This document shows positions 5,915 through 36,069 of a stretch of 64,000 bases of DNA, piece by piece. Source of the DNA: Meghimatium bilineatum (taxonomy: Eukaryota > Mollusca > Gastropoda > Stylommatophora > Philomycidae). Position 1 is the stretch's first letter; every line of letters starts with the position of its first letter. The stretch covers positions 24,067,467 through 24,131,466 of the forward strand of contig CM067311.1 in NCBI GenBank assembly GCA_034231615.1, read 5' to 3'. The notes below the pieces were generated by a model, which had not been told where the DNA came from, made no database searches, and worked only from the letters and a program-made list of their open reading frames with translations. Made by a program: the position numbers and the translations under genes.

Positions 5915-6104
5915 CCGATATTGCTCTAAGAACTCTTCTGCCAGCTCTTGATTGTTATGTAAGTCTTGATTAGCTGTTTGATCAGCCAATGATTTGAAAG
6001 ATGTTTCAGCTCCTTCTAGCCAGGTCAAGAAATCTTGTAAAGAAGGTTCAAACTGAAGTCCACTGTCTCTAGTAGTTTGTAGCGCCTTCCAGTGACCTGT
6101 CAAT
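5915..6104 (-). CDS. DMD: Dystrophin orthologue, exon equivalent to human exon 55 (start of R22)
   Basis: One shared base then 63 codons: LTGHWKALQTTRDSGLQF, then EPSLQDFLTWLEGAETSFKS, then LADQTANQDLHNNQELAEEF, ending LEQYR. Helix-A core LQDFLTWLEGAETS aligns with human LEKFLAWLTEAETT. Acceptor CTCAG/A; donor CGG/GTAAGT. The 190 nt and phases 2 in, 0 out equal human exon 55. It is the last recognisable exon of the gene in the window; the exon 56 equivalent must lie beyond position 1. Confidence 0.94.
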
Positions 6105-6619
6105 CTGAGGAGATGCATATGACAGTCAGCTGTGCATGTAATCACTCTGCAGTCAGTGCGTTTATGTTATACGACTATGGTCACAACCAACTAGAGATAA
6201 AAGACCTTTAAACTGTTCATTTCAATTGGCTGATCCAAGCTTTCATTGGTCACTTTGTGTATATTTCTGTCATAGGTCAATTAATATGTGGTTCAGTCAA
6301 CTGGAGTGACCATTTTGAAGGCCTTATATCTAGTCAGTTGTGCTACCGATTGCATGGATCCACTGATAATACAAACTATACCACTCTTATTTTGATGGAT
6401 TGTATTTGATATTTATAACAGATTTAAAAGTCCTTGAGGACCCACACTCTCCCTGTGTTTATACACCTTAGGGTGCATAGACCACAGACAAGGATTTTCC
6501 ATTTCTCTTTATCCTTGGGTACACCCTCAGCCTTATTCTTTGCTTAAAGGATTTAGTGATTTAAAAGTCAATTAAAATTTATCTGAGGTAAATAATTTTG
6601 GAGTTAAAAAGACACTTAC
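6105..6619 (-). other. Intron between exon 55 and 54 equivalents (515 bp)
   Basis: Ordinary AT-rich sequence; no repeat or gene seen. Confidence 0.8.
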
Positions 6620-6774
6620 CTGGTAAGAAGAATTGACCATCTGTTATTAAGCCTCTCCAATTGTTTCTTCATTTGGTGAGTGTCATCGTTGGAGTGGTCT
6701 GTGATCAACACCTCTGCTTTCCACTTGAGACTATCCACTGTTTCTTTGTGTTTATTGACATCTTCCTGGAGTTT
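6620..6774 (-). CDS. DMD: Dystrophin orthologue, exon equivalent to human exon 54 (R21 helices B-C)
   Basis: Fifty-one codons plus two bases: KLQEDVNKHKETVDSLKWKA, then EVLITDHSNDDTHQMKKQLE, then RLNNRWSILLTR across the junction. Human has LAKDLRQWQTNVDVANDLAL, LLRDYSADDTRKVHMITENI and NASWRSIHKR; the DDT motif and the helix-C Trp are conserved. Acceptor CAACAG/AAA; donor ACCAG/GTAAGT. The 155 nt and phases 0 in, 2 out equal human exon 54. Confidence 0.94.
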
Positions 6775-6830
6775 CTGTTGAAGATATGCTTTCAAAGTTA
6801 CACTAATGGACAATAAATAATTACCATCTT

Positions 6831-7094
6831 GATTCTTGATTAGAAGCTGGCCTCACAGCACGTGGGGCGTACCCATAAGTGCTCTGCCCTCTGTTCCAGC
6901 AGCCATCTAACTCGATGGTGTTTTGAGTCTAATGCTGCCAAAACAGACGTCGACATCAGGGCACAACTTTGGCCCCTGCGACAGATGTCTTTTGTTCCGC
7001 CCACCCACGCTGTGCCCGTAACTAGTTCAAGCACAATGTCGGCCTGTCGGAACAACATGGTAACTGTTATCGAAGGTTACGACTACAGGAATGC
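6831..7094 (-). mobile_element. 264-bp GC-rich retro-insertion flanked by a 14-bp target-site duplication
   Basis: The direct repeat ataattaccatctt occurs at 6817-6830 and 7095-7108, exactly bounding a segment visibly more GC-rich than the intron. On the minus strand the insert ends in a short repeat tail (aatcaagaatcaag), as expected for a SINE or 5'-truncated LINE. A 72-codon minus frame (from MLFRQADIVLELV) ends within it at 6840. I do not recognise the family. Confidence 0.7.
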
Positions 7095-7273
7095 ATAATT
7101 ACCATCTTTATAGTTATAATTTATTCAGATCATCTCAACAAATGTAGTGTTTGCTGAAATCAATATCCAACACTATCTCTCTCTCTCGTTTGATGGTATA
7201 CTTTCAGATTTCTGGTAAAATTATGCAGAATAACAGTTGTGTTTTTTTTGCTTGTCACACAGGCTAAGTTTTG

Positions 7274-7560
7274 GATTAACAAACTTTCTTATACCTTATG
7301 TTTAGTAGTCATTGCATTAATAAACTTTCATATACCTTATGTTTAGTAGTCATTGCATTAATAAACTTTCATATACCTTATGTTTAGTAGTCATTGCATT
7401 AATAAACTTTTATATACCTTATGTTTAGTAGTCATTGCATTAATAAACTTTCATATACCTTATGTTTAGTAGTCATTGCATTAATAAACTTTTATATACA
7501 GTATGTTTAGTAGTCATTGCATTAATAAACTTTCATACCTCATGTTTAGTCACTGCATCA
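7274..7560. repeat. 41-bp minisatellite made of copies of the exon 53 donor junction, 7 units
   Basis: Units of 41 bp start at about 7275, 7316, 7357, 7398, 7439, 7480 and 7521. The last one is the real exon-intron junction (exon end at 7539). In gene orientation each intronic unit reads aatgactactaaacataag then gtatatgaaag, versus the true gtgactaaacatgag then gtatgaaag. Most units therefore keep a GT after AAG; the unit nearest the exon has changed to CTGTATAT. Confidence 0.93.
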
Positions 7561-7738
7561 CTTCCTTCCCGATGAGATTCTAGAGAATCCAGCTCAACTT
7601 CTTTCTCAGAAAGCCACCGTTCAAACTGTGCATATGACTGATCAAATGCTTGACATTCCTCAAGCATCTTGTCTAGTTCTGTCTTACGTTGAGTAACATG
7701 ACTAATAGTTTGATCCCAGTCGACCTTCAGTCTCTCCG
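7539..7738 (-). CDS. DMD: Dystrophin orthologue, exon equivalent to human exon 53 (end of R20, start of R21)
   Basis: Two shared bases then 66 codons: ERLKVDWDQTISHVTQRKTE, then LDKMLEECQAFDQSYAQFER and WLSEKEVELDSLES, ending DAVTKHE. It aligns with human ERIQNQWDEVQEHLQNRRQQ and LNEMLKDSTQWLEAKEEAEQ. Acceptor TTCACAG/CG; donor CATGAG/GTATGA. At 200 nt against 212 it is four codons shorter, with the same phases (1 in, 0 out). The last exon codons and the donor are the first unit of a 41-bp minisatellite, so decoy copies of this donor follow in the intron. Confidence 0.93.
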
Positions 7739-9190: not shown

Positions 9191-9308
9191 TTTTTTCCTT
9201 GACCACTTGTCTGTCTCCCAAATTCTCTATAGTATTCTGTAGCCTGGCTGATGCTGACAACACATGATCCAACTGCGACCTTTTACTATCCATATCACTG
9301 AGATGTGT
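9191..9308 (-). CDS. DMD: Dystrophin orthologue, exon equivalent to human exon 52 (R20 helix B)
   Basis: Thirty-nine codons plus one base: THLSDMDSKRSQLDHVL, then SASARLQNTIENLGDR, then QVVKEK. It aligns with human ATMQDLEQRRPQLEELI and TAAQNLKNKTSNQEAR. Acceptor TTGCAG/ACA; donor AAAAA/GTAAGT. The length of 118 nt and phases 0 in, 1 out are identical to human exon 52. It is separated from the exon 51 equivalent by about 16.3 kb, the largest complete interval of the gene in this window. Confidence 0.93.
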
Positions 9309-9454
9309 CTGCAAGAGTAACAAATACATAGGGAATAAAACAATATGCTATACAGAATACACTTCATGTACACTATTGCTATTGAAAGTGTATTAACTAT
9401 AGACATACACAATGAGAAATATGAAGATGGATACTTGAATGGACTATCACTTGT

Positions 9455-9725
9455 GTGTTGAAGGGGCCAAATAGGGGAGCAAAGATAAGCAACAATGTTT
9501 ACCTTTTACACATTTCATAAAAGGCAACTAAGGAGGTTATGGGGTGAAGTTGGTTGTCCTATACCATATAGGATCATAGGGACCCTGAAGTTATGCTAAA
9601 GTCGGATGTGTCAGTCTGAAAATAGCAGATTTTGTAGAAAATTTATCAACCATGACACAGCGCATTTCATTCTCCAGACTACATCCTGTTAATTTGAGAA
9701 TGACACAGAAGAGTGGATTATATTA
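9455..9725 (+). mobile_element. Interspersed SINE-like repeat (family B)
   Basis: Diagnostic blocks in order: ggggagcaaagat-agcaac, tttaccttt, cataaaaggcaactaagg, ggttatgggg, gctaaagtcggatgtgtcag, catgacacagcgcattt, ccagactacatcctg. The same order occurs at 10190-10420, 27130-27345, 49850-50105 and 53785-53985. No clear tRNA boxes were seen. The word ggcgactaag also occurs in mollusc repeats I remember. Confidence 0.75.
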
Positions 9726-9885
9726 ATCTGTTATTCTGTTTACATAATATGAGATTCAGCTGAAAAGTAACCATCCTCATCAGGTGACATATTCTTTCTA
9801 GAATGTAGTCTTCCTTGTAGATCTATTGAATTCTCCACGGTCTTGAGAAAGTGACATGCACATTAACAGTAATGCACAACTAAAT

Positions 9886-10037
9886 TAAACACACACAGAT
9901 AGAATTAAACACACACAGATTAAATTAAACACACACAGATTAAATTAAACACACACAGATTAAATTAAACACACACAGATTAAATTAAACACACACAGAT
10001 TAAATTAAACACACACAGATTAAATTAAACACACACA
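9886..10037. repeat. Minisatellite, 20-bp unit (acacacagattaaattaaac)
   Basis: Eight nearly perfect 20-bp units. Confidence 0.95.
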
Positions 10038-10189
10038 GAGCTGTAGCTTTTATCTTTTAGATACATTTCCCACTAAAAAATGCCAAATCTCATTGAATAT
10101 CTTTTGCACATTAAGTCCGTCAGTATTCACTGTCATGGAGTCTAGTGTGTATGCTATTTCGGTGCAGATAAAGACCGCATGTTGCTGTG

Positions 10190-10420
10190 GCCTGAAAAAG
10201 GATTTTAAAAATAGCAACATAGTGACTGGTCATGTGTGTTGTAAGGACGTTTCGGGGTTAAGTTGATTGTCTCACACTATAGGTCAAATAACCCAAACAA
10301 TATGCTAAGTTAGATCTATGAGGCCATATGGATGTGGATATTGCCAAAAAGAACAGTAAACCATACATTCCTTTGTCTGCATACAATCTGTTAATCAGAA
10401 AGAGTTTAAGAATGAACACA
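10190..10420 (+). mobile_element. Family B repeat, degenerate copy
   Basis: Keeps agcaacatag, gggttaagttgattgtc, gctaagttagat-tatg and tacaatctgttaatc in family B order, but with many substitutions. Confidence 0.55.
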
Positions 10421-11119
10421 AAAGTAAAAGTGTATTTAAAAACAATGTAGTCATTGAATTTTAAACAGACATAGAAAATTGAATGACAATGATATTGATC
10501 AGACATTATTTATGGTGACGAAAATCTTAATCCAACTACTGTGAATAAGTAGGCAAAATTTGTAAATCAGAAGCTAACGAAGTCCAGTCTCATGTGATTT
10601 CATTAAAATTTGTATATTAAAAATAAAAATAATAAAAAATTCCACATACATAAAAATGTTTATAATACATTAAAAAAAACATTATTATGGCTTCTCAAGC
10701 TGTCACAAATTACATTGAGACAAGACTTTTTGTATGTGCTAATATACACATTTTAATACTTTTGCTTTCAATTAACCATTTTCGTTGTGTGCCCTACTGT
10801 ACTCTCTTGTCATCTAATAACCATTCCAAGATTTGACACTTCTTGTCACCTCTTATTTGTTGTTTTCTAGACCTGTATACTGTATATTATAACATTGATT
10901 TAGTGCTGTACATAGTCTCCATTTGATTTTGTGGTTCCATTCTGAGTTTGTTCACTGCTGTCTTGATACAGACCTTTTGGTTGAAACATTTATCCTGTGT
11001 ATTGTTGGTCAATGTAAAACTGATATTCAATAATTTTTATCACCAAGCTAGTAAAGGGAATATTGAGGATGAACCTAGATAACATAACCTTGACAAGTTT
11101 CTGTGACTGGAGAAAAGCC
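10421..11119. other. Intron, no gene or repeat recognised
   Basis: AT-rich unique-looking sequence, with poly-A/T runs near 10620-10680. Confidence 0.6.
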
Positions 11120-11492
11120 TCATGAGAAGTTTGATAACATAATACGAAGTAACTATTGAATCACTCAACTACACATCGTCACACAGCTAGACATTCATTA
11201 AGTTTGATAACATAATACGAAGTAACTATTGAATCACTCAACTACACATCGTCAACACAGCTAGACATTCATTAAGTTTGATAACATAATACGAAGTAAC
11301 TATTGAATCACTCAACTACACACCGTCACACAGTTAGACATTCATTAAGTTTGATAACATAACACGAAGTAACTATTGAATCACTCAACTACACATCGTC
11401 ACACAGCTAGACATTCATTAAGTTTGATAACATAAAACGAAGTAACTATTGAATCAACTACACATCATCACACAGCTAGACATTCATTAAGT
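11120..11492. repeat. Tandem repeat, 73-74-bp unit, five copies
   Basis: The unit begins aagtttgataacataatac and runs through actattgaatcactcaac, acacatcgtcacacagc and tagacattcatt. Copies start near 11128, 11199, 11273, 11346 and 11419. Confidence 0.93.
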
Positions 11493-11579
11493 GTCATCTC
11501 CACAAGAAAGACACTGAAATAAAAAAGTAGAGCTCCTTATCAAGGAATTGGGTTATATCAAAATTAGTTCAAAGTGAGT

Positions 11580-11730
11580 GGCATTCACACTTGACTGCAC
11601 ACATTCACACTTGACTGCACACATTAACACTTGACTGCACACATTCACACTTGACTGCACACATTCACACTCGACTGCACAAATTCACACTTGGCTGCAC
11701 ACATTCACACTTGACTGCATACATTATCCC
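11580..11730. repeat. Minisatellite, 20-bp unit (cacacttgactgcacacatt)
   Basis: Seven units with few changes. Confidence 0.93.
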
Positions 11731-12574
11731 TTAGATAAGAGGATGGGGATTCATACCCCCATTGGACATCAGAACATAACAATTAGCACTAGGGAGCAAG
11801 CCAATAAGAGGGAGGAGGGTAATACACCCCCTCCCCCAATTGTTCATTTTTAAACTCATTTATTTTTTTGAGAGGCCAATTAGTGGTCTCCCGCCAAAAT
11901 AAATGTCACTAAAATTCAGCAAAAAGAGGAAATGCCATTCCTTACCAAACATGTGGTTACAGCTTTGCAACATACAGCGGAGACATTTCTGAATACAAAA
12001 TTAAAACCTATTCCAAACATCAATCCCCCACCTCTATACTCACAAAATTTGGTGCCCTGGAAGTGTTTTTGCCTACTTATTGACTGTAGCTCAATGAACA
12101 GTTCCATCACTGTAAACGACTTCTAAACAATGATTAATGTCTGTATGGTTCTGTTTTTTTATTACCTTCTGTATTTAAAGTGGAAGGTATTCATGTCACC
12201 ATGGATGAGGTGAAGGATGCTATGAATACAGGAAATACTATCAGAATTCTTCATGATGGGATGAGAAAACTGATTCACATTGGATTGATTTGAAAAAGTG
12301 ATAATCCATATGCGGATTATTAGTGAATGTACATTATTTATCAACTGATCCTCATAATTTATTTCTAATTTGACAAACAAAAATGTATATTCTTTATGTA
12401 AATGAACATCAGTATCATAACCAGCTTAAAAACAACTAAACATACTACCAAGAACTATATCATATCTATCAACATCTAGAAGATCATTTATTTTGTATTT
12501 CAGCTCAAAATACCCTAAAAATTTTGTGCTTTTAGTTCAATTCTGCAGTTTCTTCACTAAATCTAAATAAATTG
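11731..12574. other. Intron; nothing recognised
   Basis: AT-rich, with a C-rich patch at 11825-11840. No coding or repeat similarity seen. Confidence 0.6.
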
Positions 12575-12790
12575 GTAACATATCCTATCCAGGACGTAGC
12601 TATCAACCCAGCATTTGTTGGCTGTGGTGATTTTCTAGGCAATATAAATACGTTCAGTAGGTTGCCATTGCTTTCTGAACGGTCCGGATGCACAATTGCC
12701 TGTGGTGAGGATCGAACTCGGTACCTTTGCCATCACAGACGCGCTCTGTACCACTTCGCCACAGAGCCGGACCAATCTAAATACTAAAGG
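12575..12790 (-). mobile_element. tRNA-derived SINE (family A), best copy
   Basis: Reading the minus strand, a tRNA-like head has box A tggcgaagtgg and box B gagttcgatcc. It is followed by the body catccggaccgttcagaaag, ggcaacctactgaacg and the tail tgatagctacgtcctgg. These blocks match the plus-strand copy at 1096-1312. The A and B boxes fit the internal RNA polymerase III promoter consensus. Confidence 0.85.
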
Positions 12791-13934
12791 TAAATATGAA
12801 CATATTCTATGAAACATGAATTTTTAAATATTTTTTTAATATAGAATACAGATAATTTGTATTAGTTGGCATATATGAACTGTATAGTAAAGAACTAGAC
12901 AACATCTGTACAAGGTAACCACACAGTGAAGATCTAGAAGATGTGTATTGTAAACAAGGTAAAAATTCAGATAACACATGTACATGGTAACTAAAACTAG
13001 CAGAGGTACTACATCAATGCACTCATAAATAACAATTAAAAGTACATATTTGTTGATTTGATATTAACAGCTCTTGAAAATATTACAACAAAAGCAAATT
13101 ATTAAATTATATAATCTGTTACATAAGTGGTGATAGGACATCAGAAAGATCTGAAATTGTTCCACAAAAATGGGATAAAAATTGAAAAGCGCACACAAAA
13201 CTCAAACATGATTTTTTCCATTAGGCACCAACCTTGGTCAATGACATACAAACTGTTTTTTTCTTTAACTCAGCCAGTGATATTGCTGACAATTTGTGAT
13301 TTATGGACACATCAGGTTCAAGTCTTGTGTGTAAGTCCTTTGATTTGTATTGTTATTCCTCAAATCCACTTACTTACTATTTATTCACAAAATTGTCTAA
13401 CTTTGTGCTTGCTAGAGTTTACATGATTACCATTCTAGGCAGAGAGATCATCATGATAATGTGTATGATCTACTTATGAAATCTGCAGTGAATAATTATA
13501 TATATTGGTGATATATACGTATTATATGATTTGTATTCTATTTGTTTGTCTACAGTATTCGTGCTTCATTCTTGGGAGTCTTTGTCTGGTAATATTTCAT
13601 GATTCATAATACCATACAAATTGACAACATTCTAAGAAGGAGTATGATTTTGTAAACATAAAAACAGGAATCTGTGTGCCCAGTTAACAGAAAAGTACCA
13701 ATTCAACAATAGCTGGATAGTATACAAGCTATTGTTAAATTATTTTATTATTATTAATCAACATCACCAATTGTTAAGCAGCTATCAAAGTTTGTACAGA
13801 ACAAAAAATAAGAGGATACACAAATATTTTTACAGAAACAATTGTAGAATGTATCAAGATAATTCTAGGAAACATGCAAAAAATAATCTGAAAACAAAAC
13901 GAAGCATAGAAATAAAACTGCATGCATTCAATCA
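12791..13934. other. Intron; nothing recognised
   Basis: Very AT-rich. Short open frames on both strands show no motif. Family C starts at about 13935. Confidence 0.55.
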
Positions 13935-14055
13935 CTGAAAAATCAAATATGGTTGAAAAGACATAAAGGATTGACTTAATTGTACTTGGGTTACCTTCTG
14001 AACGAAGTAGCATGGCACCCGATTACTTATAAGCATATAACTCTGCTCGTTATCT
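13935..14055 (+). repeat. Interspersed repeat (family C), partial
   Basis: Contains ggttgaaaagacataaagga, ttgactta-ttgtactt and gcatataactctgctcg, homologous to 3620-3745. Confidence 0.6.
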
Positions 14056-14059
14056 TGTG

Positions 14060-14770
14060 AAATGTTGCCTTTACCTGGGAAATTCTACATTTGACCTCTT
14101 CAATACATCTTCCATCTAATATTATTAATGCACCCAAATATTTGAATATGTTGACTTGCTTCAGACTGATTCCTATCTACTTTAATGCTGCATTCTGGAG
14201 AACATTTACTCTTTGATATTACCATTACTTCAGTTTTTCTGCTATTCAGACTAAGCCCTTTATTATGACTTTCTTTTGAAATGATATTCATCCTATCTTG
14301 TAACTGTGTTTCATTTTCTGCAATAAAAATTGTATCATAAGCATATGGTAGGTTGCTTATATTATGCCCTGAAACTGATATTTCTGACATATCTTGTATG
14401 GATCTCATTATTATTTCATTGTACACATTGAATAGATTTGATGGCAGCACACAATCTTGTTTAACCCCCTGTTTAATGTGTTGAAATACCATCACTTGGC
14501 TATCGATTCTTATGGCTGCTCTTTTTTTGTCAATATATATTCCTTATTATTTAGATCATTACCATCAATGTCTAAATTCTCCAACATTCTAATTATTTCT
14601 TCATGTTTTACCTTATCAAATGCCTTAGTGTAGCCAATAAAGTAAAAATGCTAATCTCTGTTTACTTCCATCATTCTTTATATTAATTTTCTCAAAATGT
14701 ATATGGTGTTTGTCTCTCTGACTTCTACAAGTCTATAACGTTGCTCATTTCCACTGTTTTGATTTTACTT
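14060..14770 (-). mobile_element. RTE-type LINE, reverse-transcriptase fragment
   Basis: Minus-strand translation shows KQGVKQDCVLPSNLFNVYNE, IIMRSIQDMSE, NISNLPYAYDTIFIAENETQ and LSLNSRKTEVMVISKSKC. These are RTE RT motifs B to D, with YADD changed to YAYD. Upstream pieces (AFDKVKHEE-like) extend to about 14640. Frameshifted and dead. Confidence 0.75.
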
Positions 14771-15554
14771 CTTATTCTTGTCATTACACTTTGCATCATT
14801 GTTTTTGTCACATGACTCGTGCTCAGAGAATAGAAACATAATTGCTACAAATGAGATGCTGTGAAGCTTCAAAAAGTGGAAAAACCTCACTATTTAAGGA
14901 TGTCATCTATTACTGATTTGCTACTGCATGGTGCTTGATCTGGTGGTTCACTGAAAAGACCTTCAGATCTTTTGCACAAGAATGATTATACAGAACTTGT
15001 ATCCAACTAGTGCCTACCAATGCTTACAATTATTATAGATTTTAAATAACTGTCAGATTGTATTTTAAAAATATTTTATGTGAAAATGGCTGCAGTATCA
15101 ATGTTAAAAGTCATTACTTCGGATATGGAACTAGAGATTTGCACACAACGCACTGGCTGTCAATCCCCCACTCAGTGTCCAGCGTGCATATCCAGTGGTC
15201 AGGAGCTCTCATTGTGTAATGTCATCCCTAACCTCAACCCCTCCTAAACTCTAGAATAATCCAGTCTACTAATATTCTGCGGTGTTGCATCATGGTGCAT
15301 TTAATTCAACCTACTATAACATTAGCTATTAAAAAATGTATAGCAAAATGATCTGCACATAATGTAATATCATTGACCATGTGAAAACTATGCGCATCGT
15401 AACACAGTTGCAATGAACTTGTGTTTGATATTTAAGTTCGTACACATTCCGCTTCTAAATGAAATATAAGGTACGCACTAATTGGACACCACAAGTCCGA
15501 TTATGCATAAAAACATTATAACTACTCTTTAGTATACTGCTGACAAAAGGAGAG
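14771..15554. other. Intron; nothing recognised
   Basis: No coding or repeat signal readable by eye. Confidence 0.5.
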
Positions 15555-15655
15555 GGCAACATGTCTAATCTATTGGTGTTGACATCAGGAAAGAATAACA
15601 TGTCTAATCTAATGGTGCTGACATCTGGGGAGAATAACACGTCTAATCTAGTGTA
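15555..15655. repeat. Short tandem repeat, about 47-bp unit, 2-3 copies
   Basis: Words acatgtctaatcta, tggtg-tgacatc and gaataac recur at about 15558, 15598 and 15637. Confidence 0.7.
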
Positions 15656-16029
15656 GAATTATCTGTGGTTATTCTTATATTTTTCTGGATTGTAAACTCA
15701 CATCTTTGGCTACCAGTTACAGAAAAACTACCAAATACCAATCCAGTCAAAATAAATGTGGCATGCAAACTTAATATAAAATGACAGAAGCTGCAAAGAC
15801 AAATGATATAAAATTTAAAAAATAATATTGACATAGAACAGGTAGATGAAACCCATCCCCATTCCTTATCTTGTATACAGGATGGAGGGTGCTTCAAATG
15901 AACTCTAAAAATGTGATAGAGATTACCATGGTATTGTCTTGTCACCTGTCAATATTGTTGTTAATGATGTGAAAGAGTAGTGCTGGTTCAGTATTTTTCT
16001 GCATCTGCCATCTTGGTGCAAATTAACAA

Positions 16030-16800
16030 CATCATCATAATCATCAAGTGCCGTCTCCGCAACGAAGGTTGGCTGCAACGTATCTCCAACATCTCCTGTC
16101 TCTTGTCTTGGTGGTGCATTCTGCTAGACTGTAACCTGTCCATCCTGTAATGTTACTCTCCCACTTGTATCTCTGCCTACCTCTTGCTCGCTTCCCTTTG
16201 ACTTTACCCTCAAGTAAGGTCTTCAATAGGGTGTCATGTCTTTTAATGTGTCCAAAGTATTTTATTTGCCTGATCTTTATTTCTCTTAGTAGTTCTTTCT
16301 TCATATTAAGTGTCTTTAGCACCTCTTTATTTGTTTTCTTCTCTTTCCATGATGTTCTCCCTATTCTTCTATATACCCACATCTCAAAGGCATCAATTTT
16401 GTCTTCTAATTGTTTATTTAGTGTCCATGTTTCTGAGCCATACATTAATATGGAATAGATGTAGCATTTTATAATTCTCATTTTTAACTTGTTTGTAATT
16501 TGTTTAGATATTAATAATTTCCTCATGTCATTGAAGGTACTTTTAGCCATTCATATTCTCCTTTTAACTTCTGTTTCACATCTGCCATCATTTGTGACTA
16601 TGTGTCCAAGATATTGATACTGTTTTACTTGTTGTAGTTTCTCTCCCTGTATGTTTATGTTTACCTCCTGTTCTTCTGTGTCTTTGCTGATTATCATGGT
16701 TTTTGTTTTTTGAATGTTTATATCCAGTCCATATTCATTACTTGATTTATTGACTTGATCTATTAGTCTTTGTAGTTCATGTTCACTTTCAAATTAACAA
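16030..16800 (-). mobile_element. RTE-type LINE, 5'-truncated (RT thumb and C-terminus)
   Basis: Minus strand reads DINIQKTKTMIISK and QYQYLGHIVTNDGRCETEVK, then an in-frame TGA at about 16551. It continues SKQITNKLKMRIIKCYIYSI, LMYGSETWTLNKQLEDKIDA, FEMWVYRRIGRTSWKEK, RQIKYFGHIKRH and GRQRYKWESNITGWTGYSL, ending GDGT and stop at 16044. The tail is a gat/tgatgatgat-like repeat, as in RTE. The plus-strand copy at 53986-54735 is the same family. Confidence 0.9.
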
Positions 16801-16949
16801 CATGACATCATAATGTCTATTTAAAGATGACAGGCTCACTATTGACATGCACCAAAGAGGAGAAACATTCCATTATCAAATTGCTTCTCTTCAGACTATA
16901 GAATGAATGTGCAGAATCATGATAATAATAATCATTATTATTGTCATGA

Positions 16950-17560
16950 TAAAACATGTAACTCGGTAGTAGGGGTGCCACATAGGAAACATCTGCACAC
17001 AAAGACTTCCAAACATTCCCATCTTTGGCCGTACAGATGAGTGTGGAAAGATTACACCCTGATCATTACATATTATCATGCTAGCATTTTCTTTGTGCAC
17101 CTGTTCTATTTCCACCCTCAACTGTTCCCTGCTCAACCATAATTGAAAGTGAATCTTGTCTCATTACATTTCCAACCCATTCAAGCTTATTTCATCTCTG
17201 CCAACAGTGGTTCCTATCATTGCATGTCCAAACCATGCAAGCTTGTTCAGATTGTTGTATCACTGCCAACAGTGGTTCCTATCGACTTGAAAGTTTGGTT
17301 ATTCTGTCTCGGACAAATATATTTGTTTTATGTTCTCTTAAATAAATTTATAACACATGTGTGCAGCATTTATAGTAAAACACATGCATCCTTCTTTCTG
17401 TATCTGCAGTGAGTGTCCAGCTTTAGCAACCATACAATATAATAGATAGAACCAGTGATTTATATAGATTAATCTTGACTAAGGTACTGATTTACTTTTC
17501 CATACTACATTCAACCTTGCCATGACAGTGATAGCCATTTCCAGTATTTTCTTGATTTCG
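16950..17560 (-). mobile_element. RTE-type LINE, second family (same as 20994-21559), decayed
   Basis: The order of words on the plus strand (gcagtgagtgtccagcttta, gcaaccatacaatataatag, agccatttccagtatt) parallels 21414-21560. The minus strand gives pieces like TVEGG and KSLCADVSYVAPLLP, the known RTE tail. Between 17150 and 17290 a block containing gccaacagtggttcctatc is duplicated in tandem. Confidence 0.75.
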
Positions 17561-17689
17561 ACACGAATTGACATCATTGCATATGAGATTCCAAGTATGT
17601 AAAAATAGACACCAAATATGTGATAATTGAGTCAGAAGACTGTAATGGTGATGTATGCCTGTTAATCCAGCGAATGTATGAATGGAACA

Positions 17690-17965
17690 TTCATTCATTT
17701 TCCTTTTGCACTGAAGTTAGCGCATAGGGCAGAGGTCAGATCTCTCCAATTCTGTCTGTTCAAAGCTATTCTGTGCAGTTCTTGAATAGTATGAATATTG
17801 GTTGTTTTACTTTCTCTAAGTATTGTTCTTCTGAGTGTTTCTTTTGGTCTACCCCTGGCTATGAATGGAACAGGAAGTTTCAAAATGGTGTGAACTCTGT
17901 GACAGTGTTCACATCCAGTGTTCCTGACACAATTTTTGAAATTTCCTACTTCACTCATACACTTT
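17690..17965 (-). mobile_element. RTE-type LINE, 3' end
   Basis: Minus strand: PFIARGRPKETLRRTILRES, then IQELHRIALNRQNWRDLTSA, then LCANFSAKGK and stop. This RGRPKETLRRT type belongs with the fragments at 27370-28260 and 30848-31265. Confidence 0.8.
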
Positions 17966-18747
17966 TAAATGCCAGTATGGCATGACATTTTTCATGTATA
18001 CCAAGATGGCAAGTGTGTAGGATGCTCCTATCCTGAACAACAATATTGACAGATTATCAGGCCATGTCATGGTTATTATAATTTCTATCATAATTTTCAG
18101 GTTTTTATTTGAAGCACCTTTGCACATGTCTAGAATGTAAGACAAATTTGATTGGTAGATTGAATTATTGAAATTTATAAAATCTAAAGATTTCATTTCA
18201 TATTTATGCTCTAGAGCAGTGGTTCTCAAAGTTGGATGCAGGAAGAATGTAACTATTTAGACAATAAGATTTAAATTGATAAAATGTAAAAAGTCTTGGT
18301 AATCTGCAAAGACTTTAGATAGGTTAAAAAATTTTTCTGTGCGCACGATTTGGGGAGGGGGTGTGTGAGTGGGGGGGGGGGAAGGAGAGAGAGGAGAAGA
18401 CTGCAAATTTTGCTCAAAGAGGATGCCTCCAAAAATTGAGAATCAGAGCTGTATAGCACCAATCTATTGAATCAGAGCTCTAGAGCACATATCTATCATA
18501 AGATATTTTAATTTATGATTTTTCTTTATATTCAGAGATTCTTCTGTTTTCATAAAGACTGGAGTTCAACACTTTGTTGCTTCTTGATTGATTTCAGTCA
18601 ATTAAAACCAGATGCCCTGGAATTCTTATAAAGTATAGAACTATATTTGTCTTATATTCCATGGGGCCTGGAAATTGTGACTCTTGGTACAAAACATTGC
18701 AACAAAACACCTGGATAATGTTAACATGCATATACTCATACACACAC
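17966..18747. other. Intron; poly-G tract, no gene
   Basis: A run of ten G with flanking G-rich sequence lies at about 18355-18385. Otherwise nothing recognised up to the donor of the candidate exon at 18746-18747. Confidence 0.6.
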
Positions 18748-18945
18748 CTCAAGAAGTTTGAGGTAGCTGTTAATGTCTGCTACTTGGGCCTGTAATATGC
18801 TTAGATCATGCTCAGACAGAGATAGCAAAGAGTCTTCATCTTTATGCAAGGGTGAGCTGAGGTCAAAGATTTGAGAGTTGCTGAGCTGGAGTGAATCAAC
18901 CAGTTGTGAGTCGGTTGGAGAAGCAATAACTGAATCTGATTCTCG
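18748..18945 (-). CDS. Candidate extra (cassette) exon of the dystrophin orthologue, no human counterpart
   Basis: A 198-nt open stretch (66 codons, phase 0/0) bounded by acceptor ATTACAG/CGA and donor GAG/GTGTGT on the dystrophin strand. It lies between the exon 51 and 52 equivalents, whose junction in human is direct. It reads RESDSVIASPTDSQ at the start, is rich in Ser, Leu, Asp and Glu (LSSPLHKDEDSLLSLSEHD), and ends in a helix-like SILQAQVADINSYLKLLE. It contains no Met, so it cannot start translation. Inclusion would add 66 residues to the loop between helices A and B of R20 without shifting frame. The gene lies on both sides and the splice sites and frame agree, but I know no homologue. 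It could also be a chance open frame. Confidence 0.5.
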
Positions 18946-19429
18946 CTGTAATAAATTGGGTCAGATGCATTATCAACCTCAGTGCTGTTATTTGTTAAAT
19001 ATATAGGCAAAAAGAAAATTAATTTATGTGCATGTTTTGAAGCAGCGATAAGGTATAATATAAGTTAGCATGAAGGATATTGAGGAATAAATAAGGTTGC
19101 ATGTTCAGTAAATAATTATTGTGGAAGGAAAGAATGAAGGTATACAATTTTATAAAAAATAAAACAGACCACAGTAGTAGTGAAGTTAAAGTATAATTCT
19201 AATGAAAGAAATAAATGTAATCTAAACTATGATCAATGAGCATGCATGAAAATGATAGTAAACATGAGAATGGATGAGTGGTTGCAGTAAAGAATGAGAA
19301 AACATTTCAGATCAAAAATCTATGGCAAGGGGAAGATAAACAGAAAGATAAAGTTATAAATATTGAGAAGATATTTTGTTTATAGAGGCAACATATGGTT
19401 GTGAGACATGGACATTTTCAGCTTTCATT

Positions 19430-21979: not shown

Positions 21980-22180
21980 GGAGAATTAAGTGGCATAGTG
22001 GCTACACCATTTGCTTCATATTCAAGAGGTCGCAGAGTCTAATCCAGCCATTGACATCTTGTTTACAAATGTAATTTTTTTCAGAAATCCTTGGGGATTA
22101 TAATTTGAATCCACAGTTTCAAGTTATGTGCGGTAATCTTGGCAGGTGATGTGACTCTTTGCTGTGAGGGATTGAGTATA
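21980..22180 (+). mobile_element. Probable tRNA-derived SINE
   Basis: A tRNA-like head has gtggcatagtggctacacc (box A type) and gagtctaatcc about 30 bp further (box B type). A tail with ttgtttacaaatgtaa and a T run follows. The boxes are imperfect and only one copy was seen, so this is tentative. 21700-21980 shows nothing recognisable. Confidence 0.5.
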
Positions 22181-23920
22181 TATCATAGGCGTCAACTAGT
22201 ACGGATTTTCTGTATTGATACAGATTTCTGACCCAGAAAAAATTAAAAACCAAAATTTTTAATTTCTAAAATAGGTTATTTTGGTGTTAAATTTTAGCAA
22301 TTATTACTAATGTGGGCATTTTATCTCACATGCATGTATTGAGGGTATTGATGGGCAATAAAAGGGGAGTATTTTGGTGCTAAATACTGAAGTTTTAATT
22401 GAAATACAGAAATAAATTGTTAAGAATTACGGATTTATGAAAACATAAGTTGACTGCTATGATATATGAGGGAACCTGAGTGCAATAAAAGCAATCCTCT
22501 ACACCTTTTGAGTGTTTTGACAACCTTATGGATTCTCATTCCGTACAGAATGACAGAACAATTGGGCTCTTGGGATTTGTTAAACAATTTTATGAAATGC
22601 TTTGCTATATCCATGTACAAACCATTCAGAAGAATCAAGGAGCTTTCAGCAAATATGCCGTGATATTACACATATTCAGGAGTGGCAGAATACCTACCAG
22701 GTTTGTCATATGTCTATGGAGAGAGTACCGCAAACTGTTAGGTCCTTTAATGAGCTAAAAATGATGAGGTAATGAATGTCATTGATCAAGTGAGGACTTT
22801 GTTCATAACACCATCTGAGAACTTGCTGATGATGTGGGGACAAACATTGGTACACTTTTGATGGAAGATGTGGTCCCACAGAGAAGTCCCTACTGGAAAT
22901 TGGAAACTTCCTCATGATAATGCACCCAACCATTTCTGGCATCTGATACAAAAATTTCTCACTAAACACAAAATTGATATAGTTTTTTCCAGCTCTATAT
23001 TCTTCTTTAATGATATTTGACTGTTCCCAAAGCTCAAAATTCAGATTAAAAAATGTATTTGTATTGGCCAAAAGTTAGATACTTTTTAAACATACTTCAT
23101 AATTACAGCAAAGATGGAAAGAAGATACAGTACAGAAGGAAAGCTAGTTACAGCAAAAACAGGAAAATTGTACTTTAGAAGGAAGAATAATTGGAATATA
23201 TATAATATTAGTTGTAATAAGCAATATTTTCATGCCTCTAATGTTATAAGTTGCACTAGTCAGAGCTTCCTTTGTTTCAATGACGGGAAATTTCACAAAA
23301 ATGGAATCGCCAAGCACAGCATATAAAGATAGAACTTTATGCTACACACTTTTTTAATACAAGAACTCAGCTATAAACTATAATCACTTAAACATATGTC
23401 GTGATCATGAGAGACAAACAGATATGGATGAACTTTTATTGCCTACCAAAATGGTACATAAGTCACGGTGAAATCTACTGGCAAAGAGGCGGTGATAGCA
23501 GCCACCACTTGGCTCCTCAAACACAACCATGAATACAAACAATAATTCTATCAGATTTACAGAGCATGTTGCACAAATGTGAAGGTGCATGATAAGAAGA
23601 GAGTTCTTGAGTTTGTTAGTTAGTTCCATATACATATGTACTGTAGTGATTTCTTTCCGTGTTAATTACCTCATTGCAAGTTGCTTTAGTTCTTGTGTAT
23701 TGTATTATATCCCATATTGAGCTTTCTCTGTTAATTGTTCTGTGTAGAGTTCTTTAGGGCAAACATAATTTTTTTTAGCCCTTTGCCTTCACATGAAAGT
23801 TTATTTAAGAAGTCTGTTCTCATTTTACATACATAGCTGACGCAAAAAGGAAGTGGGTTATCCTTTTTTTGGCAATGCTCATGCACAAAGTATTATACGG
23901 ATCTGTTGTCCAGGTCATGA
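22181..23920. other. Intron; nothing recognised
   Basis: Several open frames of 60-121 codons (for example minus 23071-22706) show no motif I recognise, no splice context matching dystrophin, and low-complexity composition. The reader should treat this as non-coding. Confidence 0.5.
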
Positions 23921-24010
23921 GGGAGTTAGAGGTAATGTAAGAGCTGGTGCACTGGCAGAAAAACTATAGCAAATAGCACGAGCTGGTGCACTGGCAGAAA
24001 AACTATAGCG
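23921..24010. repeat. 39-bp direct duplication
   Basis: The block gagctggtgcactggcagaa plus aaactatagc occurs at about 23940 and 23979 with two changes. Confidence 0.85.
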
Positions 24011-24119
24011 AATAACATGATGATTATCTTCTTTCTTGTTCCACATTTACTCTCATTTAACCAGAACAAGTTTTTGGGTTTGTGCCAGAGAGCTTGAATA
24101 ATAGAAATAATAATAAGAT

Positions 24120-24335
24120 CCATATCCTATTAGGATCATAAGGGTGCCACATCAGCATAAAACACTCTCTAAATAACTTTATCCCCAGCCATTTGGAGGT
24201 TTGTAGAAAAATCACTCACACCATTCCTTGATATTATCAATACAGAATTTTATCTGTGATCCTCTCCTCCTTTTACCCTCAACATTTCCTTGCAAAATAA
24301 TGTTAAAAAGTGAGTTTTATCTTGTGAGTTTATAT
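24120..24335 (-). mobile_element. RTE-type LINE, decayed 3' end
   Basis: On the plus strand cctattaggatcataagggt, gccacatcagcataaaacac and ccattccttgatattatc follow the same order as 21015-21140 of the RTE copy with intact duplications. Many indels. Confidence 0.65.
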
Positions 24336-24467
24336 ACTCTTAGATGGTCGATGAGCTAAACATTTATGGACAGTGCCATGACGTTGGTTTATAATCAAGA
24401 AGCAGTTATGGAAATATCATGAGTACCAATGAGCTGTTGAATAAGTGTTCCCAAATTTGTTAGGTTA

Positions 24468-24965
24468 TTCTTTGTAACAAATGTTCTGCCCAGCAATTAT
24501 TTGCATACTTTGTAACAAATGTTCTGCCCAGCAATTGTTTGCATACTTTGTAACAAATGTTCTGCCCAGCAATTGTTTGCATTCTTTGTAACAAATGTTC
24601 TGCCCAGCAATTGTTTGCATACTTTGTAACAAATGTTCTGCCCAGCAATTGTTTGCATTCTTTGTAACAAATGTTCTGCCCAGCAATTGTTTGCATTCTT
24701 TGTAACAAATGTTCTGCCTAGCAATTGTTTGCATACTTTGTAACAAATGTTCTGCCCAGCAATTGTTTGCATACTTTGTAACAAATGTTCTGCCCAGCAA
24801 TTGTTTGCATACTTTGTAACAAATGTTCTGCCCAGCAATTGTTTGCATACTTTGTAACAAATGTTCTGCCCAGCAATTGTTTGCATACTTTGTAACAAAT
24901 GTTCTGCCCAGCAATTGTTTGCATACTTTGTAACAAATGTTCTGCCCAGCAATTGTTTGCATCTC
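24468..24965. repeat. Minisatellite, 38-bp unit, 13 copies
   Basis: The unit contains tgtaacaaatgttctgccca then gcaattgtttgcatactt, 38 bp, almost invariant (atactt/attctt variants). Because 38 is not a multiple of 3 and the unit lacks minus-strand stops, long meaningless frames appear on that strand. The flank at 24966-25120 keeps degenerate aattgtt/caattgtt words. Confidence 0.97.
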
Positions 24966-25660
24966 ACAATTATCAATATCTAGCAAATGTGATTTTAAAA
25001 CAATTTCTGTATGTGGCAATTGTTTTACCTAACATGTTCTATCTAGTAATTGTTCTATTTCACAACTTTCTATGTAATAATTTTTCAATCTAGTTTTCTA
25101 ACAATTGTTCCAATAAACAATTGTTCATACTCAATAAATGTATAGTCAGTAAAGAATTGATTGTCAACACAAGACAGTGTTATGAAAATCCATGATTACC
25201 GATGCCAGCAGGTGTAGAACACGAAAAGTTAAGGAGATATAGAAATACCTTGATTTTATTGGGATGTGAACCTTGACTCTTAGAACAGACTGGTATATTA
25301 ACTGCTCAACTTTAAAATCACCTTAAATGAACTTTGATTTATAAGGCACTACCTCATTTAGTTTTTAGCAATCTTAATTTTCAATGGCCACATAATGTGG
25401 CTTTTCATTGGTCTCTCAGAAGTAGCAAGTAAAATGTGACGTTAACCTATGTATAGGCTTCTTTAGAGTTAATCATAATGCAGTAAAACATGTCAATCAG
25501 TGTGGTTATAATCTTTGCACAGAATTAATTCTAAATTAGAATTCCAAACAAAAAAACAAGAAAGATATATTCCTATTGTTAGCGATGTTACAGGAAACTA
25601 GCATTCATTAGTGTATATATGCAAGCAAATATGGAAGTCATTCAAATGTTAAATGATAAC

Positions 25661-25845
25661 CTTTTGTTTCTGTATCATGTGTTCAATGTCCTTGACATCA
25701 CCAACAGTGACCTTCTGTGATCTCAGCATGTGCTCCAACAGTGTCAGCCAATCACGTAGCTCACTTATTGACCTGTCCAGCTCCACCCAAGAAGTTGTAG
25801 AAGTGGTTTGCACTTTAGCTTCGGCATAGACTTGAGCTTGCCTGG
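25661..25845 (-). CDS. DMD: Dystrophin orthologue, exon equivalent to human exon 51 (hinge-3-like linker and R20 helix A)
   Basis: Two shared bases, then 61 codons: RQAQVYAEAKVQTTSTTSW, a helix A with ELRDWLTLLEHMLRSQKVTV, and GDVKDIEHMIQKQK. This is the best match in the window: human has ELTDWLSLLDQVIKSQRVMV followed by GDLEDINEMIIKQK. Acceptor TTACAG/CC; donor AAAAG/GTTATC. The phases (1 in, 0 out) equal human exon 51. At 185 nt against 233 it is 16 codons shorter, and the missing part is the hinge 3 segment, so the hinge is largely reduced. Downstream lies the candidate extra exon 6.7 kb away. Confidence 0.95.
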
Positions 25846-28351: not shown

Positions 28352-28562
28352 CTTGTTCTACAACCTCCGTCACTGGTGATTTGGACTGATTCATCAGACT
28401 TTTAGCTAGCTCTTGAAGTTGATCAAACTCTGTGTTCATCTTGGAAATTTTCACCTGCAAGGTGTCTGGTACTTCTTGATTTTGATCCTTGCATGCTTCT
28501 AGCTGCTTCTGATGTGTAGAATTGATCTGTTTCAGTTTGTTCTGCTGGCTATCAATAACATT
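28352..28562 (-). CDS. DMD: Dystrophin orthologue, single exon covering human exons 49+50 (R19 helices B-C, start of hinge)
   Basis: Seventy codons plus one base, from NVIDSQQNKLKQINS to SPVTEVVEQ. ISKMNTEFDQLQELAKSL occupies the position of human KRKLEDLSSEWKAVNRLL, although the helix-C tryptophan is Phe here. Acceptor TTCACAG/AAT; donor CAAG/GTAAGT. The 211 nt equal the sum of human exons 49 (102) and 50 (109) as I recall them, and the phase-1 end matches human exon 50. The human intron 49 position is therefore uninterrupted here. Sequence identity is weaker than in neighbouring exons; position and frame carry the call. Confidence 0.87.
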
Positions 28563-30178: not shown

Positions 30179-30370
30179 CATTTGAGCAGTAACAACACTG
30201 GTACTTGTGTCAGACTCTGACCCAGACTTAACTGCTCCCTTCTGCTTCTCCAGAATAGCTCGAGTATCCACAATCCACTTCAACATATTATCCACATCTT
30301 CACTTAAGCTGCGGACTTTCTTGATCTCTTCTTCAATCAATCGGATTCTTTCTGGCACTTCTTTTGTAAC
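30179..30370 (-). CDS. DMD: Dystrophin orthologue, exon equivalent to human exon 48 (start of R19)
   Basis: Sixty-four codons in phase 0/0. VPERIRLIEEEIKKV aligns with human LPEKQGEIEAQIKDL, and VDNMLKWIVDTRAIL with the helix-A core LNHLLLWLSPIRNQL. A Ser/Asp/Thr-rich stretch (KSGSESDTSTSVV) follows, then TAQM. Acceptor ATTTCAG/GTT; donor ATG/GTAATT. The 192 nt compare with 186 in human, a gain of two codons in the loop after helix A. Confidence 0.9.
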
Positions 30371-32467: not shown

Positions 32468-32617
32468 CTTTTTCCATCCAAAATTGAGGTTTTCAACATC
32501 TTTATGAACATTATTCCGATCTTTCTCAGTCAGTTTGGGCGACTGCATTAGCTTTGCTCCACTACTGTTAATATTAAAAAGACTAGCTTGCCTTGGAGCA
32601 ATCTCATCTTCTCTGTC
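32468..32617 (-). CDS. DMD: Dystrophin orthologue, exon equivalent to human exon 47 (R18, helices B-C)
   Basis: Fifty whole codons, beginning DREDEIAPRQASLFNINSS and ending VENLNFGWKK. SGAKLMQSPKLTEKDR aligns with human GGPVLVSAPISPEEQD, and LNFGWKK with TNLQWIKV, keeping the helix-C tryptophan. Acceptor TTCTAG/GAC and donor AAG/GTAGAG. The length of 150 nt and phase 0/0 equal human exon 47. The intron downstream of it in the gene is 2097 bp and carries a 32-bp array and an RTE fragment. Confidence 0.92.
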
Positions 32618-34346: not shown

Positions 34347-34491
34347 CTTGACCTTCTCCAGCAAGGCCTCCAAATAAAGAGTATTTGGCCTAAGGCTGGA
34401 TCCAATAATATTCTCTGTTTCATCAATCCATGAGAAGAGGTCATCCATCTCATTAGTGAACTCTGTTGGTTCGACACTGTGCTCTTTGGTT
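34347..34491 (-). CDS. DMD: Dystrophin orthologue, exon equivalent to human exon 46 (start of R18)
   Basis: After one shared base the frame reads TKEHSVEPTEFTNEM, then DDLFSWIDETENIIGSSLRP, ending LEALLEKVK. The helix-A core FSWIDETENI aligns with human FVLWLEEADNI, and the end aligns with LKEKLEQVK. Acceptor CCACAG/A and donor AAG/GTTAGT are good. The exon is 145 nt (1 nt plus 48 codons), one codon shorter than the 148 nt I recall for human exon 46, with the same phases (2 in, 0 out). The intron to the exon 45 equivalent is 1402 bp, half of it a 26-bp minisatellite. Confidence 0.92.
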
Positions 34492-34544
34492 CTGTGGGAG
34501 TTATGAGGTATTTAGTGGAAACATATTCTACTATTTAAAATGGG

Positions 34545-34725
34545 TAAAAGATGGCAAAAGGAAAAAAAGGAAGACTAAGAGAGACTCTTCGCAGAACAAC
34601 CATCAAAGAGGGAATGAGATTTACCCATACAAGAGTTACACGCAGCAGTATCACATCGCTGGAACTGGAGAGCTCTGGTTTCAGCCCTATGCACCATGTT
34701 CGATGCTGAAGGAACATAGATAGAT
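34545..34725 (+). mobile_element. RTE-type LINE, 3' end fragment
   Basis: The plus strand reads GRLRETLRRTTIKEGMRFTH and ends in the LINE tail ALCTMFDAEGT after a frameshift, related to RPRETLRRTINREG of the copy at 30838-31265. The orientation is opposite to the gene. Confidence 0.7.
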
Positions 34726-35164
34726 ATTCTACTAAAGTCATTTCCTAGCCTATGTCTGGGATACTTTGTTGTATGCTGTATCACAAGTTTTTTTAATATA
34801 AATTTATCTTTCTCAGACTGGTACAAAATGTTGAGTGGGGGGAGGGGAGGTAAGAATTAAGGAAAATAGTCATATAAATTATCCATTGTTATTCTTTATC
34901 TAGTCACATTTTTAGTCTACTTTTTCCCACTTCTTCCCTCCTGTATTTTTGTTATCATTCATTCTCAAACTCTTCTCCAGCCAGCCATATCACTTATCAA
35001 TCCCCATTATCATTTATCCATTACCATCATCCACCAACATAAACACAATATATTTATATACTTTCACCCTAAATTCTACACAAATATTTTACATGCATTC
35101 CATTCAGGTATAAAAACTCATTTAGAATAATCATACACATAAATAAATGTTTGCTCCAAGTCAT
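34726..35164. other. Intron between exon 46 and 45 equivalents; nothing recognised
   Basis: Pyrimidine-rich and AT-rich unique-looking sequence. Confidence 0.6.
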
Positions 35165-35889
35165 TACGACAACAATCAGTAACAAATCTTGAACACAACA
35201 ATCAGTAACAAATCATGAACACAACAATCAGTAACAAATCATGAACACAACAGTCAGTAACAAATCATGAACACAACAGTCAGTAACAAATCTTGAACAC
35301 AACAGTCAGTAGCAAATCATGAACACAACAGTCAGTAACAAATCTTGAACACAACAGTCAGTAGCAAATCATGAACACAACAGTCAGTAACAAATCTTGA
35401 ACACAACAGTCAGTAGCAAATCATGAACACAACAGTCAGTCTCACATCATGAACAAAACAGTCAGTAACAAATCATAAACAACAGTCAGTAACAAATCAT
35501 GAACATAACAATCAGTAACAAATCTTGAACATAACAATCAGTAACAAATCATAAACAACAACAGTCAGTCTCACATCATGAACACAACAGTCAGTCTCAC
35601 ATCATGAACACAACAGTCAGTCTCACATCATGAACAAAACAGTCAGTAACAAATCATAAACAACAACAGTCAGTAACAAATCATGAACATAACAATCAGT
35701 AACAAATCATGAACATAACAATCAGTAACAAATCATGGACACAACAATCAGTAACAAATCATGAACATAACAATCAGTAACAAATCATGAACATAACAAT
35801 CAGTAACAAATCATGGACACAACAGTCAGTAACAAATCATGGACACAACAATCAGTAACAAATCATGGACACAACAATCAGTAACCAAC
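35165..35889. repeat. Minisatellite, 26-bp unit, about 28 copies, abutting the exon 45 donor
   Basis: Unit acaacagtcagtaacaaatc plus atgaac, with variants (aatcag, cttgaac, agtcagtctcac, ataaacaac). It ends about 4 bp from the donor at 35892-35893. Clusters of shared variants at 35440-35660 indicate block duplication. Confidence 0.96.
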
Positions 35890-35893
35890 TGAC

Positions 35894-36069
35894 CTTCTTT
35901 GTCGTGCCAGAACCTCTGAACACAGAACTTTCCATCTTTGGTTGATGACTTCCAGTTTGTTCCGGAGATTTTCTGCATTGATAGCTGCTGCATTATGGAG
36001 AATCTCATCCCCAGCTGAGTTCATTCTGGTCACATTGCTCTGATGTTGTCGTAAACTCACTTCAAGTTC
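35894..36069 (-). CDS. DMD: Dystrophin/utrophin orthologue, exon equivalent to human exon 45 (end of repeat R17)
   Basis: Dystrophin is a long cytoskeletal linker joining cortical actin to the membrane dystroglycan complex; this exon is part of its spectrin-repeat rod. It reads ELEVSLRQHQSN at the start and ends RWKVLCSEVLARQRR. The pattern SAGDEILHNAAAINAENL, a gap, then NQRWKVLC matches the human segment NATGEEIIQQSSKTDASIL then LNLRWQEVC, including the helix-C tryptophan. The acceptor is TTTCAG/GAA and the donor AG/GTCAGT. It starts in phase 0 and leaves 2 nt (58 codons plus AG). The 176-nt length equals human exon 45 as I remember it. The joining codon AG/A gives Arg with the next exon. 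A 41-bp tandem array overlaps the acceptor and a 26-bp array starts a few bases beyond the donor. Confidence 0.93.

What the first reader, a model, noticed from the sequence alone, without database searches (positions are those of the whole stretch)
5915..36069. Dystrophin rod exons with almost the same sizes and phases as human exons 45-55
Ten minus-strand exons measured from splice sites are 176, 145, 150, 192, 211, 185, 118, 200, 155 and 190 nt. The human values I remember for exons 45 to 55 are 176, 148, 150, 186, 102+109, 233, 118, 212, 155 and 190. All junction phases agree and the protein aligns in each. This is the human deletion hot-spot, so an invertebrate copy with the same architecture bears on how old the exon layout is.
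Basis: partly seen in the sequence, partly recalled or inferred. Interest (0 to 1): 0.75.

Follow-up and report, generated by a model that had tools for sequence, protein, structure and literature searches.

The report
Slug dystrophin keeps human-like exon layout
A land slug's dystrophin gene is cut into exons at nearly the same places as the human muscular-dystrophy gene, which suggests that this layout predates the split between our lineage and molluscs; this is an orderly result that general intron conservation would lead one to expect.

Summary
Ten minus-strand exons (window 36069-5915) have the stated lengths, AG/GT borders and phases, and splice to a 574-aa frame that matches dystrophin collinearly (E 5e-65). 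Contig lengths point to the land slug Meghimatium bilineatum. That genome holds a second dystrophin on chr22 with the same ten-exon order and phases.

In alignments made without exon information, 7 of 10 human introns of exons 45-55 fall at the same codon and phase in the slug genes. Introns 48/49 and 50/51 keep phase and order but are offset 3-11 residues in gap-rich sequence. Intron 49/50 is absent from both.

One claim fails: the 211-nt exon does not align with human 49+50 (713 of 2000 shuffles do as well) and is 220 nt on chr22, so '102+109' is no evidence.

Best reading: a layout inherited from at least the protostome-deuterostome ancestor. This is expected, not revolutionary. Possible extra: intron 55 is the longest of 13 measured introns in both copies (78 and 52 kb).

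The parts
35894..36069 (-). exon equivalent to human DMD exon 45 (176 nt, phase 0>2)
   Evidence: AG/GT borders; score 101 against human exon 45 vs shuffle mean 23.5, 0 of 2000 shuffles reach it; chr22 copy also 176
34347..34491 (-). exon equivalent to human exon 46 (145 nt vs 148, phase 2>0)
   Evidence: 0 of 2000; chr22 copy 145
32468..32617 (-). exon equivalent to human exon 47 (150 nt, phase 0>0)
   Evidence: 0 of 2000; chr22 copy 150
30179..30370 (-). exon equivalent to human exon 48 (192 nt vs 186, phase 0>0); the intron after it is offset 3-9 aa from human 48/49 in alignments
   Evidence: (0 of 2000); chr22 copy 183
28352..28562 (-). single exon in the place of human exons 49+50 (211 nt, phase 0>1; no intron 49); homology by position and phase only
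   Evidence: no significant similarity to human 49+50 (exons 48-50 alone found no dystrophin chain); chr22 copy 220 nt, 40% identical, also undivided
25661..25845 (-). exon equivalent to human exon 51 (185 nt vs 233, phase 1>0; hinge-3 part short)
   Evidence: 0 of 2000; chr22 copy 191
9191..9308 (-). exon equivalent to human exon 52 (118 nt, phase 0>1)
   Evidence: 0 of 2000; chr22 copy 118
7539..7738 (-). exon equivalent to human exon 53 (200 nt vs 212, phase 1>0)
   Evidence: 0 of 2000; chr22 copy 200
6620..6774 (-). exon equivalent to human exon 54 (155 nt, phase 0>2)
   Evidence: 0 of 2000; chr22 copy 155
5915..6104 (-). exon equivalent to human exon 55 (190 nt, phase 2>0)
   Evidence: 0 of 2000; chr22 copy 190
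1..5914 (-). first 5.9 kb of intron 55, about 78.2 kb in all (chr14 24,073,380 down to 23,995,164)
   Evidence: exon 56 match at chr14:23994990-23995163; length computed
9309..25660 (-). intron 51, 16,352 nt, the longest intron between exons 45 and 55 in this gene
36070..64000 (-). 3' part of intron 44, about 38.8 kb in all; exon 44 match lies outside, at chr14:24142315-24142461
   Evidence: exon 44 queries gave only weak matches in the window

Best explanation
Their introns stand where human DMD introns of exons 45-55 stand because both genes inherited them from a common bilaterian ancestor. Shown here: the predicted exons and their phases, similarity of nine of ten exons to their human counterparts, exact coincidence of seven introns, and the second gene. 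Inferred: that the exons are spliced as predicted, that coincidence is by descent, and that 48/49 and 50/51 are the same introns blurred by fast-changing protein (repeat 19 and hinge 3). Intron 49 was either gained on the vertebrate side or lost on the mollusc side, most simply before the two slug copies parted; this is undecided. The protein presumably works as other dystrophins do, as a spectrin-repeat tether between cortical actin and the membrane complex (established knowledge of the family, not tested here).
For: Ten AG/GT exons, 574-aa open frame. Collinear match to dystrophin 9c3c_D 2147-2731, E 5.3e-65; the only other chain listed at E up to 0.01 is a spectrin at 0.0085. Spectrin Pfam E 1.7e-39. 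Blind MAFFT (3 modes, three proteins) and HHalign (3 modes, two-slug profile against human) put 7 of 10 human introns at the same codon and phase. The chr22 gene, 52% identical to chr14 over this stretch, repeats order and phases with 176, 145, 150, 183, 220, 191, 118, 200, 155, 190 nt. Flanks in chr22: exon 43 is 173 and exon 57 is 157 nt, equal to the recalled human sizes; exon 56 is 170 (human 173) and exon 44 is 142 (human 148). EF-hand/ZZ exons follow on the same strand in both genes. [quoted passage not shown]
Against: No transcript was available. Two introns are not at exactly the same aligned residue (offsets 3-11 aa). Intron 49 is missing. The 211-nt exon has no significant similarity to human 49+50. 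Exons 48-50 alone found no dystrophin among solved chains at E up to 1. A 154-aa piece (end of exon 53 to exon 55) finds dystrophin best (5.6e-8), but its top stretch is another part of the rod (2114-2241, 23.9 bits), in a near tie with the expected 2591-2731 (23.7 bits). For chr22, exons 47 and 54 rank their human counterpart second of ten, and exons 48 and 55 are reached by 4 of 2000 shuffles. The layout is not kept everywhere: human exon 59 seems split in the chr22 copy (two weak matches 2.7 kb apart). No third lineage was examined, so polarity is untested.
Confidence: 0.93

Rival explanations
1. Introns were inserted in parallel at the same sites in vertebrates and molluscs (proto-splice sites), so the shared layout says little about age.
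For: Parallel gain at favoured sites is known in principle (recalled). Intron 49 shows that gain or loss does occur in this stretch.
Against: Seven exact position-and-phase coincidences of nine introns, P about 4e-16 under uniform placement and 3e-10 with a 5-nt window; the same set in two slug genes, though these are paralogues and not independent of each other in origin.
Confidence: 0.02
2. The exons belong to another spectrin-family gene (alpha/beta spectrin or nesprin) that merely resembles dystrophin.
For: A nesprin Pfam model passes its cut-off (43.8 bits against 35) while the dystrophin-1-like model does not (23.8 against 27.6); spectrin chains match exons 45-47.
Against: Dystrophin is the best solved chain over the whole 574 aa, E 5e-65 against 0.0085 for the next. 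Dystrophin-type EF-hand and ZZ exons follow on the same strand about 141-157 kb beyond exon 55.
Confidence: 0.01
3. The exons are real but the equal sizes are mostly a by-product of spectrin-repeat geometry (repeats of roughly constant length limit exon lengths), not of inherited introns.
For: Repeat lengths are constrained (recalled); 211 = 102+109 turned out to be chance-like.
Against: Seven introns coincide at single-codon resolution, with phases 2, 0, 0, 0, 1, 0 and 2.
Confidence: 0.03

Closest known systems
Human DMD exons 45-55 (Dp427)
   Same: Exon order, phases of all 9 slug introns, 7 of 10 human intron positions exactly and 2 more approximately; lengths equal in 6 of 10 on chr14, counting 49+50 as one
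   Different: No intron 49; exon 51 shorter by 48 nt, exon 53 by 12, exon 46 by 3; exon 48 longer by 6; 27-29% protein identity
Second slug dystrophin, chr22, from 12337799 (exon 43) to 12484597 (last ZZ-region match), plus strand
   Same: Same ten-exon layout and phases, no intron 49, 7 of 10 lengths equal to chr14
   Different: 52% identical in this stretch; exon 48 is 183, 49-50 is 220, 51 is 191 nt; intron 44 only 1.2 kb; exon 44 read with a GC donor
Teleost dystrophin exon 51 (PMC1790709, passages)
   Same: Short exon 51 lacking much of hinge 3; both slug exons 51 are short too
   Different: Vertebrate gene; exact fish lengths not checked here
Sea urchin SuDp98 and fly Dp205 (PMC1790709, passages)
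   Same: That paper says these isoforms arise in the intron orthologous to human intron 55 (Dp116), which is the longest measured intron in both slug genes
   Different: No slug promoter or transcript was tested

Membership tests
dystrophin (DMD/UTRN co-orthologue) | rod of spectrin-type repeats, collinear with vertebrate dystrophin | tested here: met
   exception: the 211-nt exon
dystrophin (DMD/UTRN co-orthologue) | C-terminal EF-hand pair and ZZ module in the same gene | tested here: met
   matches in order at chr14:23916012-23932271 (-) and chr22:12471795-12484597 (+); joining to this rod inferred from strand and order only
dystrophin (DMD/UTRN co-orthologue) | N-terminal pair of CH domains | tested here: inconclusive
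   CH family search: 41 matches at E up to 0.001, the one on chr14 lies at 0.65 Mb, none near this gene; a dystrophin N-terminal query did not complete
dystrophin (DMD/UTRN co-orthologue) | WW domain before the EF-hands | not tested
   no search made
human DMD exon 45-55 layout | the ten introns 45/46 to 54/55 at the same codon and phase | tested here: inconclusive
   7 exact, 2 same phase within 3-11 aa, 1 absent
human DMD exon 45-55 layout | frame consequence of removing any contiguous block of exons | tested here: met
   55 of 55 blocks agree mod 3 in both slug genes, 49+50 counted as one
human DMD exon 45-55 layout | junctions used in mRNA | not testable with these tools
   needs RNA reads, e.g. 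SRR25867028 named in PMC10770140 (passage)

The most novel reading that the evidence does not exclude
Intron 55 is a giant, promoter-bearing intron kept since the bilaterian ancestor. It is the longest of 13 introns measured (43 to 56, there being no intron 49) in both slug genes: 78.2 kb on chr14 and 52.1 kb on chr22, the next longest being 38.8 and 8.5 kb; it is also large in human (about 120 kb, recalled). It may hold a slug Dp116-like start that yields a short isoform beginning at exon 56. The slug would then keep not only exon borders but the gene's internal promoter architecture in two diverged copies.
Probability: 0.3. Interest if true: 0.5.

Novelty: new member of a known kind. Interest (0 to 1): 0.35.

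Why it matters
The frame rule that separates severe from mild human deletions rests on exon phases, those of exons 45-55 among them. Both slug genes have the same phases, so that pattern is probably at least as old as the split of molluscs and vertebrates, not a vertebrate quirk. The two slug copies give a natural test of which parts drift (repeat 19, hinge 3, exon 51 length) and which do not. That many animal introns are this old is already accepted, so the result is a clear, useful example and not a surprise.

Tried and rejected
Exact match '211 = 102+109' as evidence: rejected (220 nt in chr22; 713 of 2000 shuffles). Conserved non-coding sequence shared by introns of the two copies: only the first 5.9 kb of chr14 intron 55 was at hand; it gave 2 short matches to chr22 intron 55, and intron 51 gave 4 matches, the longest 199 nt at 97%; the same call shows many dispersed repeats common to both regions, so these were not pursued. 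RNA families: 0 matches in the window. Exon 44 or 56 inside the window: only weak matches, the best to other rod exons; the exons lie outside. Attempt to follow the layout past exon 57 in chr22: weak matches only, suggesting a split exon 59; the first try printed nothing, probably because of an invalid option. Literature: the listings of ten paper searches (not all of them on this question) showed no paper that by title compares mollusc and human dystrophin introns. They show 10-20 papers each of up to 189, from an open PMC library only, and older papers on sea urchin and fly dystrophin (Wang 1998, Neuman 2005, seen only in the reference list) were not read. Structure prediction was not used: it would not bear on intron positions.
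Full report
What is in the window. The minus strand holds ten exons between 36069 and 5915 with lengths 176, 145, 150, 192, 211, 185, 118, 200, 155 and 190 nt. Each is flanked by AG and GT, and the phases run 0>2>0>0>0>1>0>1>0>2>0. They splice to a 574-residue frame without stops; introns are 1402, 1729, 2097, 1616, 2506, 16352, 1452, 764 and 515 nt. Against all solved structures the protein finds dystrophin 9c3c_D at E 5.3e-65, residues 1-573 against 2147-2731. The only other chain at E up to 0.01 is an erythrocyte spectrin at 0.0085. Pfam gives Spectrin at 1.7e-39. The recalled sizes of human exons 1-44 put exon 45 at codon 2147, where the match begins.

Where it comes from. The window is C14:24067467-24131466 of a 1,612,235,226-base genome in 32 contigs. 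[quoted passage not shown] 25 chromosomes plus 7 scaffolds make 32. The species name rests on this comparison.

A second gene. The same protein finds nine of its ten exons again on chr22:12341353-12381951, plus strand, at 40-67% identity; the tenth, exon 52, was found in the fetched DNA. Reading borders by splice sites and phase gives exons 43-57 as 173, 142, 176, 145, 150, 183, 220, 191, 118, 200, 155, 190, 170 and 157 nt, fourteen exons joined in one open frame. The exon-44 donor is GC. Both genes are followed on their own strand by EF-hand and ZZ matches. The breaks between those matches (near query residues 66, 95, 147, 203 and 241) fit the recalled human borders of exons 65-69 (codon ends) if the query begins at residue 3123, a recalled numbering that no call checked. 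Land snails and slugs underwent an ancestral genome duplication, and this species was among those studied (PMC12328838, abstract and two sections). The pair may date from it, but no tree was made.

Are the introns the same? The three proteins were aligned without exon information in three MAFFT modes, and a two-sequence slug profile was aligned to human in three HHalign modes. In all six, introns 45/46, 46/47, 47/48, 51/52, 52/53, 53/54 and 54/55 fall at the same residue and phase in chr14; the MAFFT runs show the same for chr22. Introns 48/49 and 50/51 keep phase and order but are offset: in MAFFT by 9 and 11 (chr14) or 6 and 11 (chr22), in HHalign (chr14) by 3 and 8-9. Intron 49/50 is absent in both. 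Seven exact coincidences of nine, with ten human introns in 1779 sites placed uniformly, has P about 4e-16, or 3e-10 with a 5-nt window. Identity over the stretch is 28.6% human-chr14, 22.5% human-chr22 and 52.1% chr14-chr22.

What does not fit. Exon by exon, nine of ten chr14 exons beat all of 2000 shuffles, and among ten human exons each of the nine scores best with its counterpart. The 211-nt exon does not (713 of 2000 reach its score; counterpart ranks 5 of 10). For chr22, seven exons beat all shuffles, exons 48 and 55 are reached by 4 of 2000, 49-50 by 587, and exons 47 and 54 rank their counterpart second. Exons 48-50 alone found no dystrophin at E up to 1. A piece from the end of exon 53 through exon 55 finds dystrophin best, but its top stretch (2114-2241, 23.9 bits) is elsewhere in the rod, nearly tied with the expected 2591-2731 (23.7 bits). 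As the chr22 exon is 220 nt, the equality 211 = 102+109 carries no weight. Farther on, human exon 59 appears split in chr22 (E 0.001 and 0.25, 2.7 kb apart), so the layout is not kept everywhere.

How it works and what it means. The simplest account is descent: a dystrophin gene already cut at these places in the common ancestor of molluscs and vertebrates. The phases, and with them the frame effect of removing any block of exons, are the same in human and both slug genes (55 of 55 blocks, 49+50 counted as one). Exon 51 is 48 nt (chr14) or 42 nt (chr22) shorter than in human. [quoted passage not shown] Whether intron 49 was gained or lost cannot be told without outgroups.

Intron sizes. From match coordinates, chr14 introns 43, 44 and 55 are about 22.6, 38.8 and 78.2 kb, and intron 56 about 4.5 kb (coordinates). 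In chr22, introns 43, 44, 55 and 56 are 2.0, 1.2, 52.1 and 1.6 kb. Intron 55 is the longest of the 13 measured in each copy. [quoted passage not shown] A slug promoter there is a conjecture. The hot-spot breakpoints of patients often lie in intron 44 (PMC6162458, passage); its size differs about 30-fold between the slug copies, so size there is not conserved.

Novelty. That animal ancestors were intron-rich and that many human introns are old is an accepted view (PMC3488318, passages). No paper listed in the ten searches (named in Tried and rejected) compares mollusc and human dystrophin introns by its title, but the library and the listings are partial. I rate this a new member of a known kind.

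Noticed in passing
window 4167-5501: A mariner-type DNA transposon inside intron 55: a 344-aa open frame (Transposase_1 E 1.7e-18, HTH_48) between identical 29-bp inverted ends.
   Followed up: partly
window 44422-47807 (-) and 62422-62766 (-): Pieces of non-LTR retroelements: endonuclease and reverse transcriptase matches. About 4.1 kb covering the first matches two places in the 200 kb of chr22 at 96-97% identity.
   Followed up: no
window 40087-42385; 55405-57783; 35169-35885; 24470-24962: Long minisatellites in introns 44, 44, 45 and 51: 46 bp x 50, about 37/70 bp over 2.4 kb, 26 bp x 28, 38 bp x 13.
   Followed up: no
G000 chr22:12339965-12340106: Exon 44 of the second dystrophin is read with a GC donor (GCAAGT), the only border of the fourteen exons that is not AG/GT.
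   Followed up: no
G000 C10/C24 and C16/C25: Other spectrin-repeat clusters also seem to come in pairs of contigs, as would be expected after a genome duplication; the pairs were not compared.
   Followed up: no
G000 chr22 about 12438355-12441219: Human exon 59 seems to be split into two exons in the second slug dystrophin (weak matches).
   Followed up: partly
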